Origin: Bacteroidales bacterium
Lineage (GTDB): Bacteria; Bacteroidota; Bacteroidia; Bacteroidales; UBA932
Assembly (NCBI GenBank): GCA_024401715.1
Contig: JAKSKO010000007.1
Location: 1 to 46,006, forward strand
DNA: 46,006 bases
Direction of reading: 5' to 3'
The notes under the pieces were generated by a model, which worked only from the letters and a program-made list of their open reading frames with translations, did no database searches and had not been told where the DNA came from. Below, one piece after another: positions 27,713-35,911 of the stretch; positions within the stretch are counted from its first letter, which is position 1; the number at the start of each line of letters is the position of its first letter. Made by a program: the position numbers and the translations under genes.

Positions 27713-27744
27713 TTTGCATATTCCACGATAAAAGCCTAATTTTA
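27713..27744 (+). promoter_or_regulatory. Promoter of the alarmone/partner-switch operon
   Basis: A -33 TTTG at 27713-27716 and a -7-like TAATTTTA at 27737-27744 (one mismatch to TAnnTTTG at the last base) are 20 bases apart, the spacing expected in Bacteroides promoters. The first gene starts at 27767. Confidence 0.5.
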
Positions 27745-27766: not shown

Positions 27767-28858
27767 ATGGAAAATTACGGACTGGACCTTCACTGTTCAA
27801 TGCTTTTGGATGATTACCGTGAACTTTTGCCAACTCTTCACCAGTTGGAAAAGGTGGTAGCCGACACATTGAACGGCATAGTATCCGACAACGGCATATA
27901 CATAAACGCCATCGAACACCGCATAAAAGCGGAAAAATCGCTGGCCGGAAAATTGGAACTGAAAGGTCACAAATACAATAGCATAGACGATATCACAGAC
28001 CTTCTCGGTGCCCGCGTGATAACATTCTATTCCGATGAGGTGGACAAGATTGCCGCACTTGTGGGAAAACAGTTCATCGTGGACTGGAACAACAGCATAG
28101 ACAAGAGGAAAATGCACGAGCTGGACAGTTTCGGCTACAATTCCCTCCATTTCATATGCAAGGTTCCGAAAGAACTCTACTTCAATCCGGAGTTCCCGAA
28201 ATTGAACGACATACGCTTCGAAATCCAGATGCGCACCGCCATGCAGCATGTATGGGCCACGATGTACCATGACACGGGATACAAATCCGGCGTGGAGATT
28301 CCTAAAGAGTATCTTCGCAACCTGAACCGCTTGGCAGGCATGCTGGAGCTGGCCGATGAGCAGTTCAGCATCATACGCACTGAAATCAACGACTACAGGC
28401 GCAGGGTGCAGAATCTTGTTAGCACAGGTGAGTTCGAACAGGTTATCCTGGACGGCGACAGTTTCAAGAGCTATCTGAAACTGAATCCTTTCGATGCCCT
28501 GAACAGAAAGATTGCCGCAACAAACCAGGCCGAAATCATGCCAACCTCACTTATCCCTTACCTGGAGGTTCTGAAACGTTTCCACTTCAACACCCTGGGA
28601 GACATCGAAAAGATGATAAAGGAAGAAGGAGACTCCGCATATCAGCTGGCAGTCTATCAGCTTGGAAACACAGACATTGACATCATAAGCAGCTCTGTTG
28701 CCCTGCAGAACCTCATTCTTGCAAAAATCATCAGATCCGGCAGCGGTGAACCGTTCGTGAAACTTTTCTACGACACTCTGTACGGAGAATCGGATTACAA
28801 CCAGGAAAGGGCCCGCAGAATAATTGAAGACGCAAAAAAACTAGGTATTTTGAAATAA
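27767..28858 (+). CDS. RelA/SpoT-domain (p)ppGpp synthetase, stand-alone form with C-terminal extension
   Basis: 363 residues. The alarmone synthetase fold occupies roughly 45-180: HRIKAEKS at 51-58 (the R-x-K substrate motif), DDITDLLGARVI at 74-85 with the metal-binding Asp, GYNSLHF at 123-129 for guanosine stacking, and FEIQMRTAMQHVWA at 151-164 with the second catalytic acid. All key residues are present, so it should transfer pyrophosphate from ATP to GTP or GDP. There is no HD hydrolase, TGS or ACT domain, unlike long RelA/SpoT proteins; a helical region of about 180 residues follows the catalytic part. First gene of a five-gene operon; a hydrolase gene starts after a single spacer base. 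It could also be a toxin-type synthetase making another product. Confidence 0.87.
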   Translation: MENYGLDLHCSMLLDDYRELLPTLHQLEKVVADTLNGIVSDNGIYINAIEHRIKAEKSLAGKLELKGHKYNSIDDITDLLGARVITFYSDEVDKIAALVGKQFIVDWNNSIDKRKMHELDSFGYNSLHFICKVPKELYFNPEFPKLNDIRFEIQMRTAMQHVWATMYHDTGYKSGVEIPKEYLRNLNRLAGMLELADEQFSIIRTEINDYRRRVQNLVSTGEFEQVILDGDSFKSYLKLNPFDALNRKIAATNQAEIMPTSLIPYLEVLKRFHFNTLGDIEKMIKEEGDSAYQLAVYQLGNTDIDIISSSVALQNLILAKIIRSGSGEPFVKLFYDTLYGESDYNQERARRIIEDAKKLGILK

Positions 28859-28859
28859 G

Positions 28860-29438
28860 ATGAACGCAAAACTTGAAACAAGCCTTCTGGACAAGGCCAT
28901 AATATTCGCCACAAAAGCACATGCCGGCACAGAGCGCCGCGGAAAGGGATTCCCTTACATCGTTCACACCATGGAAGCCATGGAAATTGTGGCCACAATC
29001 ACCCCGGACCAGGAGATGCTTGCCGCTGCGGCCCTGCACGACACCGTAGAAGATACCGATACCACCATCGAACCGATACAAGCCGAAGTCGGCGAAAGGG
29101 TGGCAAGACTGGTACATTCAGAATCGGACGTGGTTATTGAAGGTGCAGAGTGCGACACATGGCATGCACGCAAACAGGCTGCAATAGACCGCCTGGCTGC
29201 CGCGCCTCATGATGCAAAGATTGTTGCCCTGGGAGACAAACTGTCCAACATGAGGGCAATATACCGCGATTACATGACCGTAGGAGACAATTTGTGGAAG
29301 ATTTTCCATGCACCGAACGGCAAACCGGACCATGAATGGCATTACAGGGGCCTTGCAGCATCACTTTCAGAGCTGAAAGACACTTTTGCATATCAGGAAT
29401 TTGTAGAACTAATAGATAAAGTATTCAACCATGATTAA
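28860..29438 (+). CDS. HD-domain alarmone hydrolase (MESH1/SpoT hydrolase-like)
   Basis: 192 residues. The SpoT-type hydrolase metal site is complete: His36 (PYIVHTMEA), His60-Asp61 in ALHDTVEDT, and Asp126 in LGDKLSNMRAI; Glu64-Asp65 form the ED pair required for (p)ppGpp hydrolysis. The size fits single-domain small alarmone hydrolases. It would remove the 3'-pyrophosphate from (p)ppGpp, opposing the synthetase encoded one base upstream. Its last 8 bases overlap the anti-sigma ATPase gene. Keeping the two activities in separate coupled genes, instead of one bifunctional protein, is the notable feature. Confidence 0.87.
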   Translation: MNAKLETSLLDKAIIFATKAHAGTERRGKGFPYIVHTMEAMEIVATITPDQEMLAAAALHDTVEDTDTTIEPIQAEVGERVARLVHSESDVVIEGAECDTWHARKQAAIDRLAAAPHDAKIVALGDKLSNMRAIYRDYMTVGDNLWKIFHAPNGKPDHEWHYRGLAASLSELKDTFAYQEFVELIDKVFNHD

Positions 29439-29826
29439 AAGATTCGACCCGATTGAAGGCAGAAATTCCGACATAATCGAGAGCATTATGCAGAGCGACG
29501 AGGTCGTAGGTTTGGGAGACGACCTCAAATTCAAAATACGCCTCTGTGTTGAAGAGGTGGAGGAAAATATACTTTGTTACAGTGGTTCCACCTGGGTGGA
29601 GGCCGGTGCAGAGGTGGAAGGCGACCACCTGTCCATAAGCTTCCGCGACGGAGGAGTGGAGTTCGACCCTCTTGCAAAAGCGGATCCGGACATTAACGCC
29701 CCTCTGGAGGAGAGGCAGATAGGCGGTCTTGGCATTTTCCTTTGCAAACAGATGATGGATGTTGTGGAATACAAGCGTGAAGGCGACCACAACGTGCTAA
29801 AAATGAAAATCAATATCAAACTTTAA
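29431..29826 (+). CDS. RsbW/SpoIIAB-like ATP-binding anti-sigma regulatory factor
   Basis: 131 residues of the GHKL ATPase fold. The N box is EEVEENILCYS with Asn46, the G1 box is FRDGGVEFDPL at 71-81, and the G2 box is GGLGIFLCKQMMD at 98-110, followed by VEYKREGDHNVLKMKI, which closely follows RsbW-type kinases. Such proteins bind a sigma factor or other partner and phosphorylate a serine on a STAS antagonist. Here the STAS gene is next downstream. No sigma factor gene is in the window, so the target may not be a sigma factor. It overlaps the hydrolase gene by 8 bases, so expression is tied to the alarmone genes. Confidence 0.87.
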   Translation: MIKRFDPIEGRNSDIIESIMQSDEVVGLGDDLKFKIRLCVEEVEENILCYSGSTWVEAGAEVEGDHLSISFRDGGVEFDPLAKADPDINAPLEERQIGGLGIFLCKQMMDVVEYKREGDHNVLKMKINIKL

Positions 29827-29836
29827 TTCTTTTTTC

Positions 29837-29844
29837 TAACTTTG
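29837..29844 (+). promoter_or_regulatory. Internal -7 promoter box before the STAS gene
   Basis: TAACTTTG matches TAnnTTTG, in the 37-base gap after the anti-sigma ATPase gene, and is 19 bases before the STAS ATG at 29864. It suggests that the antagonist and phosphatase genes can be expressed without the upstream genes. Confidence 0.5.
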
Positions 29845-29863
29845 CAATCAAAATCTTAATAAT

Positions 29864-30166
29864 ATGGACGTAACTATCAAAAAAGAAGGCGCACAGACCC
29901 TTGTAACCCTAGTAGGACGCCTGGACACAACAAACGCAGACCAGTTCCAGAAGGACATCACTCCGCTTATGCAGGACGAGAATCCGGATATTGTGCTGGA
30001 TTGCACCGATATGGAATACACATCGTCACAGGGCCTCAGAATGTTCCTTCTGCTTCAGAAGAGCGTTTCTTCAAGAGGGGGCAAGATGGTAATGACAAAC
30101 ATGAAATCACAGGTTAAGGAAGTGTTTGACATCACCGGCTTCTCCAATATCATCAAGATACTTTAA
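29864..30166 (+). CDS. STAS-domain anti-sigma factor antagonist (RsbV/SpoIIAA-like)
   Basis: 100 residues, a single STAS domain. The strand-helix order is typical: VTLVGRLDTTNADQFQKDI at about 14-32, DIVLDCTDMEYTSSQGLRMFLLLQK at about 42-66, and the last helix region VKEVFDITGFSNIIKIL. By alignment with B. subtilis SpoIIAA (Asp57-Ser58-Ser59-Gly60) the phosphorylated serine corresponds to Ser55 in Ser54-Ser55-Gln56-Gly57; the residue before glycine is Gln, whereas it is usually Ser or Thr. In partner switching the unphosphorylated protein binds the RsbW-like ATPase and frees its target. Its stop codon overlaps the start of the phosphatase gene (TAATG). Confidence 0.9.
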   Translation: MDVTIKKEGAQTLVTLVGRLDTTNADQFQKDITPLMQDENPDIVLDCTDMEYTSSQGLRMFLLLQKSVSSRGGKMVMTNMKSQVKEVFDITGFSNIIKIL

Positions 30167-30972
30167 TGTACACATTCGCCACACAGTCCATTCATCTTAC
30201 CAGCGTTATCAACGCAAGAGAGCTGGGTGGATATAAACTCCCCGACGGACGCACAATCCGTTGGGGATGCTTGCTTCGTGGCGGAAGTTTCGCAAACCTT
30301 ACCCCTGAAGACAGGGCTATCCTCAGGGATAAATTCCACCTGAACACAAACTTCGACTTCCGCACCGAAACAGAGGTCACCTATGCTCCGGACCGCCCTG
30401 TACAGGGTGCCAAGCATATATGGCTGCCGACCATAGACCCCGCTACGGAAACACTGTCGGACCAGTCCTTTCCTGCAGATGCATACAAGGACCTCGGCAA
30501 CTATCTGGTGGAACACGCATCGGAACCGATAGCCCAGAAACTGGCCAGAAACCTGTACACCGATATGGTTATGAATGAGTATACACAGCTTCAGTATGCC
30601 GCATTCATGCAGACCATAGTGAACAGCCCCGGCGGAGCCATCTACTGGCACTGTTCGCAGGGAAAAGACCGTACTGGCCTTGGTGCAGCCTTCATCCTGT
30701 GTGCCCTTGGTGCAGACAGGGAACTTATCCTTGCCGATTACAGGATTTCCAACGAATTCTATAAAGACCTTTTGGAAGAATTATACAAAAAGGTTTCCAC
30801 CCAGGAGGAAAGAGATGTTCTCCTAACCTTCATCGGTGTTAATGAAAAATACTTCTGCAACGCCCTGGATCTCATAGACAGGCGTTACGGAAGCCTGGAG
30901 GGCTATCTGAAAGGCCCTCTTTGCATGAGCGACGAAGATATACAGACCCTTCGTGACCGCTATACAGAATAA
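30166..30972 (+). CDS. Tyrosine / dual-specificity protein phosphatase (HCxxGKDRTG type)
   Basis: 268 residues. The N-terminal part (VINARELGGYKLPDGRTIRWGCLLRGG) and the P-loop HCSQGKDRTG at 162-171, with nucleophile Cys163 and Arg169, put it in the MptpB-like/Y_phosphatase3 family. The Lys-Asp pair inside the loop is typical of members reported to act on phosphotyrosine, phosphoserine/threonine and phosphoinositides. No signal peptide, so cytoplasmic. Its start codon overlaps the STAS stop, so the two are made together. In known partner switches the STAS phosphatase is a PP2C enzyme; none is encoded here, and this protein occupies that place. Function as STAS phosphatase is inference. Confidence 0.88.
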   Translation: MYTFATQSIHLTSVINARELGGYKLPDGRTIRWGCLLRGGSFANLTPEDRAILRDKFHLNTNFDFRTETEVTYAPDRPVQGAKHIWLPTIDPATETLSDQSFPADAYKDLGNYLVEHASEPIAQKLARNLYTDMVMNEYTQLQYAAFMQTIVNSPGGAIYWHCSQGKDRTGLGAAFILCALGADRELILADYRISNEFYKDLLEELYKKVSTQEERDVLLTFIGVNEKYFCNALDLIDRRYGSLEGYLKGPLCMSDEDIQTLRDRYTE

Positions 30973-31074: not shown

Positions 31075-31182
31075 ATGAAAAAATCCTTACTCTTCTTGCA
31101 GGCCTCGCACTCAAGAAGGTTCTCCTACTTTCGTTTTAGGATAGCGAAATCGCAAGCGAAGCATTTGGAGATAGAGGTATAA
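31075..31182 (+). pseudogene. Frameshifted signal-peptide remnant of a lost exported-protein gene (or 35-codon small ORF)
   Basis: The frame from the ATG reads MKKSLLFLQASHSRRF and stops at 31180-31182 after 35 codons. If one base is restored at the TTGCA near 31096-31100, the product becomes MKKSLLFL followed by AGLALKKVLLLSF, which looks like the n and h regions of a lipoprotein-type signal peptide, and then meets a TAG at 31137. I read it as the 5' end of a surface-protein gene with a one-base deletion and most of the gene lost, still under its own promoter. Alternatives are a genuine small protein or a small RNA; the sequence cannot decide. Confidence 0.4.
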
Positions 31183-31183
31183 A

Positions 31184-31230
31184 GAGTGGGACTTCAAGTC
31201 TTACGGCTTTAAGTCCCACTCCCTCTTTTT
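31184..31230. terminator. Bidirectional intrinsic terminator
   Basis: GAGTGGGACTT (31184-31194) pairs perfectly with AAGTCCCACTC (31211-31221), with a 16-base loop. On the plus strand CCTCTTTTT follows; on the minus strand TTTATA follows. It ends the small plus-strand unit and also lies 25 bases after the stop of the minus-strand surface-protein gene. Confidence 0.8.
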
Positions 31231-31245
31231 ATATCTCGGAAAAAA

Positions 31246-33969
31246 TTATTGATTAGAAACCGGGGTCATGATTTCTCCCGTTTCAGTATTTCTCCAAGTG
31301 GTTTTCGCCTTGTAAGAATCGTCACCACCATAATAGAAGCATGCGTGCAGATTGTTCATAAATTCAGGTGAACAATATATTGTAACGTTATCAACTTCTG
31401 CCGCGAAGTCTCGGAATGTAAAACTTGCATCGTCTTGATTATTCAGTTCATCCACTGTGAACACGAAATCTTTGCCAAGTTTCAATTCCTTCATGTTTTT
31501 ACATTCGGCAAAAATGCTACCCAAACCGGTTGTATGTCCTCTTGTGAATGAAGAAATATCCAAGTCCTCAAGACCGAAACAACTGCCAAACATGATTGCG
31601 ATATTTGTTGCTGAACTCATGTTAAAGAAATTGAGGTTAAGGCTCTTCAATGATCTACAACCGGCAAACATGGCGCGGAAGTTCTCTGCATAATGTGTGT
31701 CAAAATTGTCTCCCCAGGTTATTGTTGTCAAGGCTTTGCAATCCTGCAGCATTGATTCAAAACTAATAACTTTGGAAGTCTTGAACTTACTGAAGTCAAG
31801 TGAGGTAATCTTTTCACATTCCATGAACATTCCGCTCATATCTGTCAGTTGTTCCGTGATGAAATATGATCCTTATGATAATGACTTGAGATTCTTGCAA
31901 CCGCCAAACATTTCGCACATTGTTGTTACCTCAAATGTCTTGAAGTTTTCAAGGTTAATGGTAGAAAGTTTTAAACAATGAGCAAATAGTCTGGTCATAT
32001 CTTTGACATTCGATGTATTCCATGCTGAAACGTTTATTGACTCCAGTGAACTGCAGCCATCGAACATTTCATAAAGATCTACTGCCTTTGACGAAACAAA
32101 TCCGCTAACATCTATTCCTGTCAATGAAGAACAATTTTTAAAGAAACTTCTGTAGGACTCGGCATTTACACTGAAGCTTGTATAACTTAGTGAACGTAAT
32201 GCAGAACAACCCTCAAAAACATTGTCAGCCCTTGTAACATTCTGGATGTTGAAGTTTCCAAGATTTATTGATTCCAATGAAGAACAGCCATTAAAGGCGC
32301 TTGTAAGACGGTCACCTCCAGTATTGGACCAACCGAAATTATGGAGATCTAGTGTTGCAAGGTTCTCACATCCCATGAACATTCCATCATATTCTGCGCA
32401 CCCGGACATATCAATGTCTGTCATATCAATATTTACCATGTTTGTACAGCCATTAAACATCTCATTAGCCCCGCTTATCTTACACCCGTCAAAACATGAA
32501 AGGTCTATGCTTGTAAACGAACGGCAGCCTTTAAACATCTCTCCACACCAAAGGTCTTGATCTTTAGGGAATGTCTTTCCACTTGGCCATGTAATAGATG
32601 TTAATTTTTGACAACCTTCAAACGCAAAATAGGGCTCGACAATACCGGACAGTTCCCAAGATGACAAGTTAAGTGACGTCAATTCCTGACAATTATAGAA
32701 TGTACCCATCATGGATTTTGTGTATTCCGTTGAGAAATCCTGAAAATCAATACTTTCGAGATTGACAAGATTCTTGAACATGTACTGAATTGTCTCTCCT
32801 CCAAATACGTGTGCATCAGGGCTCTTGATATACATCGTACTTGCAGTTGGATCCCAAACAGCATAGATAGGACTGGTTGAGTTCTGATCGGAAACATCTA
32901 CATATTGTAATGAAGGTGTTCCACTGCTGTGTGCACTAAATACTATGTGCTTTATCAAATAGTCTTTCTTGTCCAATATGAAGTCTTCCCCATTTGCCAG
33001 CGATTTGATTGCAATATTGAATTGTTCTCCGTGCTCAATCATATTTACGTCTCCACCTTCAAGATTGTCAAGCTCCGGACGTGATGCGGTACCTGGCTTA
33101 TATGGTTTTCCTTCTGCTCTGGTGAAATGAGTGACAAACGTAGCGTGAGGCCCCTTAAGTTTCACCTTTATCTGTTTGCCCGAGAAATCATCCGGAGCCA
33201 TGATAAGGTTGACAACCACCCGCTGATTAGGTTCTGTCGTGGCAAAATTCTCAAGGGCAATCTCAAATTCATCACACCACTCCGTTGCTGTAATTGACGG
33301 TTCTCCTCCCGATGTGATATCTATCGTACCACAAGAAATGAAAGGTTTACCCTCACATGTGAGCGAAAGAGAAGTGTATTCTGCAACCTTTGGAACCACC
33401 ATCTGGAACTGAAGGATTACACCCAGATGCTTGAAATCGAAACCGATATTACCATTAGCCGATGGTTCTGTAGGCGTGGTAAGCATATAATCGTAGCCTG
33501 TAAGGTGCCCTGTAGTTCCGTTACCAACCTGAACCTGTCCGATATAGGAAACAGGAATAGCCGTCATGTCAAGATCCATGTCAGGAACAAACGGGTAATA
33601 TGAAGAGTAATTCTCGGCTTTCATGACAGCCCAACCATTACCGGTGAAATTGGCATTTGATGTACTTGATCCGCCTTCTACCTCTCCGTCTGAGATAGGG
33701 AATTTAACCTGCGTACCCTTGCCGTTGTTTGGGAATACTCCCACAACATCATTGCTTGACCAGCTGAAATTCAAGCCGTCAGACCCAAGCGTTATGGCGG
33801 TCTTCGTGCCGCCGTCCTCCAGAATGAAATTGTGTGCAGTCATGGTAACGCTTTCAATATCCACGAGTGCCCTCGGTTCCTCAAAAACGGGAGCCTGCTT
33901 TACACAAGATACAAGTCCCATAAGCGATATGACGCTTAATAGGGATAAAGATGTAGTAATCCTTTTCAT
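31246..33969 (-). pseudogene. BspA-like leucine-rich-repeat (DUF285) lipoprotein with fimbrillin-like N-terminus, interrupted by one in-frame stop
   Basis: Translation from 33969 starts MKRITTSLSLLSVISLMGLVSC, a lipoprotein signal with lipobox Cys22. Residues of about 40-290 look like a fimbrillin/Mfa-type beta domain (GGTKTAITLGSDGLNFSW, KPYKPGTASRPEL). From about residue 390 on come tandem repeats of roughly 23-25 residues with the pattern MFxxCxxLxxLxLSxF, the DUF285/BspA leucine-rich repeat. A TAA at 31873-31875 stops the frame after 698 codons. The same frame continues with GSYFITEQLTDMSGMFMECEKI and five or so more repeats to a natural end at 31246 (NTETGEIMTPVSNQ). The stop lies in what looks like a 9-base insertion (tcataagga next to tcatat). 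The first 698 codons could still make a shorter surface protein. Such proteins mediate adhesion in oral and gut species. Confidence 0.8.
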
Positions 33970-34959: not shown

Positions 34960-35886
34960 CTAAAGAGCGGTGATTTGTCCCTCTGACAATCCAGTATACT
35001 TGACAATAATTTTGACATCAACGCCATCGGCCTTCATGGCTTTGGCAATTTCCACTTGCTTTTTGGTCTCGCCTTTGGCAATACCTTTGGCTTCTCCTTT
35101 GAGTTCGGCGTCAAGAAGGCTGTCTTCGATATCGTACTTAGTATCCATAATCCTGTCGTACTCCAGTTGTTCTTCTGCTTTGAGGTTTGCATACAGACTG
35201 GCCTCAAAATAGGCCGCTGCGCCGGGATCATCGGCAAATTCCTGCGGAACCTCTTTCATGTGCTTGGAGTTACGCAACAAAGTTAACCACTTTTTCTCAA
35301 ACTCATTCACATTTTCCACAAGTTTGTCCGATTTGCGGAGCTGCAGGAAGATGTATTCCGGTGAAGCCGGCATCTTTTTGCCTGTATCCACATTGGTGGT
35401 GCGATAATGGATTATAGTACTTTCAAAGTCGTCATCCTTCTCATAAAAGTCCAGGTTGAAGTTAAGGATGGCAATCACATACGTACCCTTGATGTCGTAG
35501 TTGAATTTCCGCTTGTTCTTCTGCTTTTTGGACTTCTTATCATCTGTTTTCTCCAGATCCTTAAGTTTTGAAATGACTTTGGAGGCATAAAACATCATTC
35601 TCTCCCTGAAGTAATAGTGACCGGCGTTTTGCATCTCGATGATGAAATGGTTGCCCTTGTCGTCTTTTGCCAGCACGTCCACTATGGTAGTGCGTTCGTT
35701 CTTGCTCTCCTTGTCCTGCACCGTATTGAGGAACTCAACGCTCTGCACATTGATGCCCTCGATAAAGCTGTTGATAAGGTCGATTGTTGCCGATGAATAC
35801 TCTTTTGTTCCAAAAATCTTCTTGAACACGAAGTCCACTGTCGGGTCTGCAAACACAATGTTGCTGCGATTTCTTTGTTTACTCAT
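34960..35886 (-). CDS. Rpn family recombination-promoting nuclease / PD-(D/E)XK transposase-like protein
   Basis: 308 residues from MSKQRNRSNIVFADPTVDFVFKKIFGTKE; an ATG 4 codons earlier (35898) is also possible. The N-terminal FADPTVDFVFKKIFG is the standard opening of Rpn-type proteins. The nuclease core follows with the Asp of IVDVLAKDDKGNHFIIEMQN at about 75-94, giving the D...E-x-Q variant of the PD-(D/E)XK site, then YYFRERMMFYASKVISKL. The C-terminus has a GEAKGIAKGETKKQVEIAKAM-like repeat and a short helix-turn-helix-like end (IVKYTGLSEGQITAL), both common in the family. E. coli relatives promote RecA-independent recombination. It stands alone in the AT-rich island, with a terminator after it. 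Confidence 0.9.
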   Translation of the reverse strand: MSKQRNRSNIVFADPTVDFVFKKIFGTKEYSSATIDLINSFIEGINVQSVEFLNTVQDKESKNERTTIVDVLAKDDKGNHFIIEMQNAGHYYFRERMMFYASKVISKLKDLEKTDDKKSKKQKNKRKFNYDIKGTYVIAILNFNLDFYEKDDDFESTIIHYRTTNVDTGKKMPASPEYIFLQLRKSDKLVENVNEFEKKWLTLLRNSKHMKEVPQEFADDPGAAAYFEASLYANLKAEEQLEYDRIMDTKYDIEDSLLDAELKGEAKGIAKGETKKQVEIAKAMKADGVDVKIIVKYTGLSEGQITAL

Positions 35887-35911
35887 AGCTTGATACATTT
35901 TAATCAAGCTG

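What the first reader, a model, noticed from the sequence alone, without database searches (positions are those of the whole stretch)
27767..30972. Operon joining a split alarmone synthetase/hydrolase pair to a partner-switching module and a tyrosine-type phosphatase
Seen: five genes in one direction, with gaps or overlaps of 1, -8, 37 and -1 bases, encode a RelA/SpoT synthetase domain protein with all catalytic motifs, a single-domain HD hydrolase with complete metal ligands (His36, His60, Asp61, Asp126) and the ED pair, an RsbW-like ATPase, a STAS antagonist with the target serine, and an HCxxGKDRTG phosphatase. Known: alarmones and partner switches are both stress controls, usually encoded apart. 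Inference: the operon may couple (p)ppGpp level to release of a sigma factor or another target. The synthetase could need the hydrolase as an antidote, as in toxic small alarmone synthetase systems.
Basis: partly seen in the sequence, partly recalled or inferred. Interest (0 to 1): 0.75.

Follow-up and report, generated by a model that had tools for sequence, protein, structure and literature searches.

The report
Alarmone enzymes wired to protein switch
In a group of gut bacteria, genes for enzymes that look able to make and destroy a starvation-signal nucleotide usually sit beside the genes of a membrane-sensor protein switch known elsewhere for freeing sigma factors, which suggests that the switch controls the starvation signal.

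Summary
Confirmed: five same-strand genes encode a RelA/SpoT synthetase (SYN), single-domain HD hydrolase, RsbW-like ATPase (ATP), STAS antagonist and Y_phosphatase3 (PTP). The link is not chance: of 80 loci with SYN relatives (53-65% identical), 45 have 7 kb on both sides; HD, ATP and STAS all lie on SYN's strand within 7 kb in 37, plus a sensor PP2C phosphatase in 35, in many orders. Among 61 same-genus genomes, STAS occurs in 31 of 31 with SYN and 3 of 30 without; HD in 29 of 31 and 1 of 30. Five loci titled Fibrobacter also carry cassette genes, suggesting transfer between phyla. No annotated recurrent neighbour is a sigma factor, and no SigB/F/G-type match reaches cut-off. Closest working analogues: Pseudomonas SiaABCD and HsbA-HsbD, where partner switches gate diguanylate cyclases. 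I propose that PP2C, kinase and STAS gate SYN and/or HD: a partner switch with an alarmone output. Association is shown; contact, direction and product are inferred. My literature searches listed no description of it.

The parts
27713..27744 (+). possible Bacteroidetes-type promoter (TTTG, 20 bases, TAATTTTA) upstream of SYN
   Evidence: read by eye; consensus recalled; one mismatch; weak
27767..28858 (+). SYN: 363-aa alarmone synthetase (RelA_SpoT domain aa 51-175) with an uncharacterised C-terminal region of about 150 aa
28860..29438 (+). HD: 192-aa single-domain alarmone hydrolase (SAH-like, HD_4)
29431..29826 (+). ATP: 131-aa RsbW-like HATPase_c_2 protein, presumed STAS kinase
   Evidence: (RsbW models below cut-off)
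29837..29844 (+). TAACTTTG, possible internal -7 box before STAS
   Evidence: 33 matches in window, 25 expected, so weak
29864..30166 (+). STAS: 100-aa anti-sigma-antagonist-type protein, invariant Ser54-Ser55; only match in this genome (E <= 1e-6)
30166..30972 (+). PTP: 268-aa Y_phosphatase3 (HCSQGKDRTG), accessory member of the cassette
31174..31237 (.). terminator-like hairpin between PTP and the convergent leucine-rich-repeat gene
   Evidence: -33.3 kcal/mol, z -6.7

Best explanation
The five genes are a compact version of a conserved signalling cassette in which a partner switch controls an alarmone synthetase/hydrolase pair. A membrane PP2C phosphatase with a periplasmic PDC/dCache sensor (sometimes with a periplasmic binding protein) dephosphorylates the STAS protein at Ser54/55 when it senses its signal; the RsbW-like ATPase rephosphorylates it. 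The unphosphorylated STAS, or the ATPase left free by phospho-STAS, binds SYN and/or HD and sets net alarmone production. Shown: gene content, intact catalytic residues, conserved linkage, co-occurrence, fusions. Inferred: the chemistry of each step, which protein touches SYN or HD, the sign of control, and the product. In this genome the sensor phosphatase must act from another locus (candidate: DAGK-SBP-PP2C on contig C10), or is missing from the draft.
For:: of 45 loci with both flanks >=7 kb, same-strand genes within 7 kb of SYN are HD 40, ATP 39, STAS 38, PP2C 37, APH 28; HD, ATP and STAS together 37, with PP2C 35. Order varies (38 order strings in 80 loci, some cut by contig ends) but neighbours recur: SYN>HD 57, ATP>STAS 43, PP2C>ATP 41, HD>APH 37, STAS>SYN 33. 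Fusions: PP2C+ATP 20, HD+APH 18, PP2C+STAS 1, SYN+HD 1. STAS in 31/31 SYN+ and 3/30 SYN- genomes of the genus; HD in 29/31 and 1/30; where SYN and HD are apart, HD sits with PP2C-ATP-STAS in L155 and L156; active sites intact; five Fibrobacter-titled loci form one SYN clade with cassette genes, though their SecDF is only 34-42% identical to the window's; type of switch follows the SYN tree (3 changes, shuffled mean 18.5). Precedents, passages only: PMC8457831, PMC7647112, PMC6482189.
Against: The window's operon has no PP2C, and the C10 PP2C is at best 38% identical to cassette PP2Cs. SYN with about 8 kb on both sides but no HD, ATP, STAS, PP2C or APH exists (L030, L063). In 6 of the 31 SYN genomes of the genus the STAS match is on another contig than SYN (G002, G008, G014, G015, G047, G057), so it need not be the cassette's STAS. 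STAS relatives occur without SYN in eight other genomes of the order (six inspected) and in G018 and G048 of the genus, so the switch is not exclusive to alarmones. Linked genes of related species are not independent observations.
Confidence: 0.55

Rival explanations
1. Parallel outputs: the switch frees another target (a sigma factor or other regulator), and the alarmone pair is co-expressed because both answer the same stress.
For: RsbW/RsbV-type proteins classically act on sigma factors (start of abstract of PMC11619594 in the listing). PP2C-ATP-STAS sets exist without SYN elsewhere in the order.
Against: No sigma factor among the recurrent neighbours that gave a Pfam match; only sub-cut-off SigB/F/G matches in this genome. 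STAS was found in only 3 of 30 same-genus genomes without SYN, odd if it had an independent main target. STAS directly precedes SYN in 33 adjacent pairs. A non-sigma target has not been looked for.
Confidence: 0.2
2. [quoted passage not shown]
For: SYN>HD adjacency in 57 pairs; HD in 29 of 31 SYN genomes of the genus and elsewhere in 8 of 10 genomes picked for lack of adjacent HD. FaRel is flanked by an SAH antitoxin gene (PMC11782079 passages). Distant SYN relatives occur without cassette genes in virus contigs, and plasmids hold partial matches.
Against: SYN exists without findable HD in G012, G025, G453, G459 (drafts). This genome has three other RelA_SpoT proteins, two with HD hits. In the PDB profile search synthetases named GTP pyrophosphokinase score far better (E 8e-16 to 2e-14) than 7ztb, a CapRel entry (E 0.003). 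A bare toxin-antitoxin pair does not explain sensor, kinase and STAS.
Confidence: 0.15
3. SYN makes, and HD, APH, PTP or DAGK process, a different pyrophosphorylated small molecule rather than (p)ppGpp, and the cassette is a dedicated new messenger pathway under the switch.
For: Recurrent kinase- and phosphatase-family genes near SYN in the 80 loci, either strand: APH 51 (18 HD+APH fusions), DAGK 10, cytidylate-kinase-like 5, PTP 9. The genome already has other RSH-type proteins.
Against: Core synthetase and hydrolase motifs are canonical (motif identity recalled); nothing tested about substrates.
Confidence: 0.1

Closest known systems
SiaABCD of Pseudomonas aeruginosa (PP2C SiaA, kinase SiaB, STAS-like SiaC, diguanylate cyclase SiaD)
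   Same: PP2C phosphatase + kinase + STAS-related protein co-encoded with a nucleotide second-messenger synthetase; unphosphorylated SiaC binds and activates SiaD (PMC8457831, PMC7647112 passages)
   Different: Here the enzyme is a RelA/SpoT synthetase plus a hydrolase, STAS is PF01740 rather than SiaC (PF09345), the kinase candidate is HATPase_c_2; APH, PTP and DAGK accessories; no binding shown
HsbR-HsbA-HsbD of P. aeruginosa
   Same: Phosphorylation state of a STAS protein decides binding to a diguanylate cyclase (PMC6482189 passages)
   Different: There the phosphorylated form binds the cyclase, and HsbA also acts on FlgM; output is c-di-GMP
RsbU-RsbW-RsbV / SpoIIE-SpoIIAB-SpoIIAA partner switches
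   Same: PP2C (in relatives), HATPase and STAS with Ser
   Different: No cognate SigB/F/G-type sigma factor found; RsbW models matched below cut-off
toxSAS modules (FaRel/aTfaRel, CapRel)
   Same: Small synthetase beside a small alarmone hydrolase in FaRel (passages)
   Different: Profile nearer to GTP-pyrophosphokinase-type small synthetases than to CapRel; partner switch attached; toxicity unknown
SAS and SAH of the RSH superfamily (Atkinson 2011, PMC3153485, passages)
   Same: Single-domain synthetase and hydrolase
   Different: The passages shown list long RSHs (Rel, RshB) as the set of Bacteroidia and describe no SAS/SAH-switch cassette

Membership tests
Small alarmone synthetase (SAS) | RelA_SpoT synthetase domain with catalytic motifs and no HD domain in the same chain | tested here: met
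   one relative (L031) is a SYN-HD fusion
Small alarmone synthetase (SAS) | makes (p)ppGpp or related alarmone | not testable with these tools
   no assay
Small alarmone hydrolase (SAH) | stand-alone HD_4 domain with metal ligands and ED pair | tested here: met
   36 of 36 keep H36, H60, D61, E64, D65, D126
RsbU/W/V partner switch | HATPase kinase candidate and STAS with conserved Ser side by side | tested here: met
   NCBIfam RsbW models matched only below cut-off; kinase activity not tested
RsbU/W/V partner switch | PP2C (SpoIIE) phosphatase in the same locus | tested here: inconclusive
   within 7 kb of SYN in 61 of 80 relatives' loci; absent from the window operon; three SpoIIE matches elsewhere in the genome
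RsbU/W/V partner switch | cognate SigB/F/G-type sigma factor | tested here: not met
   two matches, 116 and 107 bits, cut-off 234; genome 90% complete
toxSAS toxin-antitoxin | synthetase always accompanied by its neutraliser | tested here: inconclusive
   HD in 29 of 31 SYN genomes of the genus; not found in 2 of 10 genomes picked for lack of adjacent HD; drafts
toxSAS toxin-antitoxin | toxicity of the synthetase | not testable with these tools
   no assay
SiaABCD | SiaC (PF09345) regulator and diguanylate cyclase output enzyme | tested here: not met
   STAS is PF01740 and the enzyme is PF04607; so it may work like SiaABCD but is not a member
Y_phosphatase3 (PF13350) | family profile and P-loop HCxxGKDRTG | tested here: met

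The most novel reading that the evidence does not exclude
A partner switch directly gates an alarmone synthetase/hydrolase pair: an outside signal read by a membrane PP2C sets the phosphorylation of a STAS protein that binds SYN (or HD), making the starvation nucleotide a dedicated output of a transmembrane sensor, independent of ribosomes and of any sigma factor, carried as a cassette that also moves between phyla. The recurring APH, DAGK and PTP enzymes may further tailor the product.
Probability: 0.45. Interest if true: 0.82.

Novelty: new variant of a known kind. Interest (0 to 1): 0.68.

Why it matters
Small alarmone synthetases are mostly thought to be controlled by transcription, allostery or antitoxin binding (recalled). 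A conserved cassette that puts one under a membrane phosphatase/STAS switch would give the stringent response a direct outside input, extend the partner-switch-to-second-messenger idea from c-di-GMP to alarmones, and suggest what RsbW/RsbV-like proteins do in bacteria without a SigB. It is directly testable with a few purified proteins.

Tried and rejected
Chance neighbours: rejected. Simple synteny of close relatives: rejected as sole cause. SYN relatives are 53-65% identical, the window's SecDF lies within 7 kb of SYN in only 1 of 80 relatives' loci (1 of the 45 with full flanks), and on the SYN tree the STAS position changes at least 4 times and the HD separation 5 (a quick tree with 29 of 80 inner branches open). 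PTP as replacement for the PP2C: not supported, since 8 of the 9 loci with PTP also hold a PP2C. SYN C-terminal region: no convincing Pfam match. Known defence system: PADLOC matched the synthetase domain only (PDC-S33, E 1e-14, about a third of the protein) plus hits at E about 0.01. Spread of the whole cassette by plasmids: no plasmid place covers 80% of SYN; three virus relatives carry no other cassette gene in the 7-11 kb held. Three distant relatives in the phylum (G557, G737, G570) are without cassette genes in the 16-17 kb fetched. G028 has HD without SYN or STAS.

Limits. The profiles used to count neighbours were built from the same loci, which helps detection but not position. One search kept the best 80 of 157 relatives. 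Some genome search genomes are the same records as loci (equal contig lengths: L146/L046, L147/L024, L148/L076), so counts from the two are not added. Of 13 loci without an HD profile hit, five end within 600 bases downstream of SYN (L011, L048, L052, L060, L066), and L048 shows the start of an HD gene by tblastn. Recurrent gene clusters 6, 7 and 16 look like antisense frames and were not scanned against Pfam; clusters 13, 15, 19 and 22 gave no Pfam match at 1e-5.
Full report
What is there. Pfam gives RelA_SpoT, HD_4, HATPase_c_2, STAS and Y_phosphatase3, each over its cut-off; of the narrower NCBIfam models only the STAS one is passed. The catalytic residues are invariant in alignments of relatives (45 SYN; 36 HD; 43 ATP, 45 STAS, 10 PTP). 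SYN resembles solved small synthetases named GTP pyrophosphokinase (E 8e-16 to 2e-14 with a profile) far more than 7ztb, a CapRel entry (E 0.003). Its C-terminal region of about 150 residues has no convincing Pfam match. The HD protein is nearest to solved single-domain HD proteins (7qoe, 7qoc), with an entry named Small Alarmone Hydrolase further down. A terminator-like hairpin follows the last gene. A TAACTTTG box before STAS may be an internal promoter, but such boxes are hardly above chance in the window.

Where the window comes from. It is contig C67 of a 1.98 Mb draft genome, about 90% complete. Record titles of relatives name mostly Bacteroidales from animal gut and rumen metagenomes, including Candidatus Cryptobacteroides, Cacconaster and Colimorpha; five are titled Fibrobacter. 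The same genome holds three other RelA_SpoT proteins, two with HD hits.

Conservation. A scan of genome contigs found 157 relatives of SYN and kept 80 loci. Profiles built from the recurring genes were run on all six frames. Of 45 loci with at least 7 kb on both sides, same-strand genes within 7 kb of SYN were HD 40, ATP 39, STAS 38, PP2C 37, APH 28 (34 on either strand), PTP 6, NMT1 binding protein 4, DAGK 4; HD, ATP and STAS together in 37, with PP2C in 35. Over all 80 loci, cut ones included and either strand, HD was near SYN in 67, ATP in 63, STAS in 63, PP2C in 61, APH in 51, PTP in 9. Six of 80 (L030, L041, L048, L052, L063, L066) had none of HD, ATP, STAS, PP2C or APH by profile; three of the six end within 600 bases downstream of SYN. 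There are 38 order strings, some cut by contig ends: SYN-HD-APH-PP2C-ATP-STAS in 11, ATP-PP2C-STAS-SYN-HD-APH in 8, PP2C-ATP-STAS-SYN-HD with APH antisense in 8. PP2C+ATP are fused in 20 loci, HD+APH in 18, SYN+HD in one, PP2C+STAS in one. The exact order of the window, SYN-HD-ATP-STAS-PTP, recurs in L007 (followed by binding protein and PP2C) and in genomes G055 and G010. HD follows SYN within 300 bases in 55 of 74 loci with room downstream.

Missing parts found. The PP2C is a membrane protein with PDC/dCache, HAMP and SpoIIE domains; the APH is a phosphotransferase-family protein with HGD and DLGD motifs invariant in 12 of 12 aligned (motif meaning recalled). In the window's genome three SpoIIE matches lie on other contigs. 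One, on C10, sits in a tight DAGK-binding protein-PP2C run, genes that also occur in cassettes of relatives, but it is at best 38% identical to their PP2Cs. Whether it serves the window's STAS is open. APH relatives of this genome are on C78 and C18, with no other cassette gene in the 14 and 10 kb fetched. PTP is found with a PP2C in 8 of 9 loci, and follows HD, or HD-APH, in L152, L157 and L158, so it looks like an accessory rather than a substitute for the STAS phosphatase.

Co-occurrence. Of the 101 relatives, 61 are taken as same genus (G000-G060; inferred from the handles and from 41 genera among 101 genomes). SYN is in 31 of the 61. STAS (E 1e-6, one query) is in all 31 and in 3 of the 30 others (G018, G048, G060); it is on SYN's contig in 25 of the 31. 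G060 holds an APH-PP2C/ATP-STAS fragment on a 3.3 kb contig of a 72% complete genome, so its SYN may be missing from the draft; G048 has binding protein-PP2C/ATP-STAS and G018 PP2C-STAS, without SYN. HD is in 29 of 31 and 1 of 30 (G028). Fisher P values are below 1e-13 but overstate the case, since linked genes in related genomes are not independent. In 10 genomes picked because no HD was seen beside SYN (two of these loci, L060 and L066, are cut just downstream), HD was elsewhere in 8 and not found in 2. Around those eight HD genes, PP2C-ATP-STAS lay beside HD in L155 and L156, a SYN cassette in L162, and PTP in L156, L157, L158 and L161; L159 and L160 had neither.

Spread. In 393 genomes of the order, 10 including this one passed E 1e-30; eight others were strong (E 1e-157 or better), from five further families by code, and one was weak. 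Of those eight, all had HD near SYN and six had switch genes; L150 and L151 had SYN-HD beside an ABC transporter with an extracellular solute-binding domain. In 395 genomes of the phylum only three distant relatives appeared besides this genome, without cassette genes nearby. The five loci titled Fibrobacter (L015, L016, L039, L043, L059) form one starred clade on the SYN tree and hold SYN-HD-APH-ATP-STAS, SYN-HD (cut), HD-APH-SYN, HD-SYN-PP2C-ATP-STAS and HD-SYN with a fused PP2C-STAS gene beyond. Their SYN is 58-61% identical to the window's, but SecDF, a housekeeping protein, only 34-42%, against 49-70% (best piece) in the three genomes not titled Fibrobacter that had a good match (L024, L007, L036; a fourth, L055, had none). 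This fits the Fibrobacter titles and a transfer of the cassette between phyla, but one marker is thin evidence. STAS relatives occur in eight other order genomes without SYN at that sensitivity; six were inspected: PP2C-ATP-STAS in four (L197-L200), two of these with a binding protein (L198, L200), ATP-STAS in two (L201, L202), and SiaC-family genes beside L202. The switch is thus portable. On the SYN tree the switch type changes at least 3 times (shuffled mean 18.5), STAS position 4 times and HD separation 5 (quick tree).

How it most likely works. The recurrent set is sensor phosphatase, kinase candidate, STAS, synthetase, hydrolase. No recurrent neighbour with a Pfam match is a sigma factor (some clusters gave no match), and SigB/F/G matches in this genome are below half the cut-off. 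In P. aeruginosa, STAS-type proteins SiaC and HsbA bind diguanylate cyclases according to their phosphorylation, SiaC when unphosphorylated and HsbA when phosphorylated (passages of PMC8457831, PMC7647112 and PMC6482189). By analogy the STAS protein or the ATPase gates SYN and/or HD.

What is known. Searches for alarmone with partner switching and STAS (20 of 56 listed), SAS/SAH and Bacteroidetes (41, 20 of 22), ppGpp with partner switching (45, 15 of 88), SpoIIE/STAS/Bacteroidetes (47, 7 of 7), alarmone synthetase with antagonist or PP2C (65, 10 of 26), small alarmone synthetase with partner switch (66, 2 of 2) and Cryptobacteroides with stringent response (64, none) listed no title or abstract start that describes such a cassette. 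Of the listed papers I looked at passages of PMC3153485, PMC9765508, PMC6482189, PMC7647112, PMC8457831, PMC8256260 (terms not found) and PMC11782079 only. The library lacks most subscription papers, so this is no proof of novelty. The passages of Atkinson 2011 list long RSHs for Bacteroidia. A review of STAS-only proteins (PMC8256260) has no occurrence of c-di-GMP, ppGpp or alarmone.

Verdict.

Noticed in passing
L188, L189, L190 (virus contigs): Relatives of SYN in open frames of 361-366 aa in virus contigs, no other cassette gene nearby; L188 and L189 match phrog_9640 (unknown function).
   Followed up: partly
L015, L016, L039, L043, L059: Cassette genes in five records titled Fibrobacter, one SYN clade, with SecDF only 34-42% identical to the window's: possible transfer between phyla.
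   Followed up: partly
L202:2716-3489: Two SiaC-family genes beside an STAS-ATP pair in another genome of the order, without SYN.
   Followed up: no
L198 and L200: PP2C-ATP-STAS with a binding-protein profile hit and an ABC-ATPase profile hit nearby, no SYN: a possible transport-linked partner switch.
   Followed up: partly
L176 (G054): SYN-HD-STAS-APH with no ATPase or PP2C hit within the 17 kb fetched: a reduced cassette.
   Followed up: no
L031:7980-9677: SYN and HD in one open frame, synthetase first.
   Followed up: no
L017, L054, L057, L063, L074, L150, L151: ABC transporter genes (solute-binding/permease and ATPase profile hits) beside SYN or its cassette (Pfam on two representatives), a possible nutrient input.
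   Followed up: partly
window 31873-33969 and 34960-35907: BspA-type leucine-rich-repeat protein and PD-(D/E)XK transposase-family gene downstream on the - strand.
   Followed up: no
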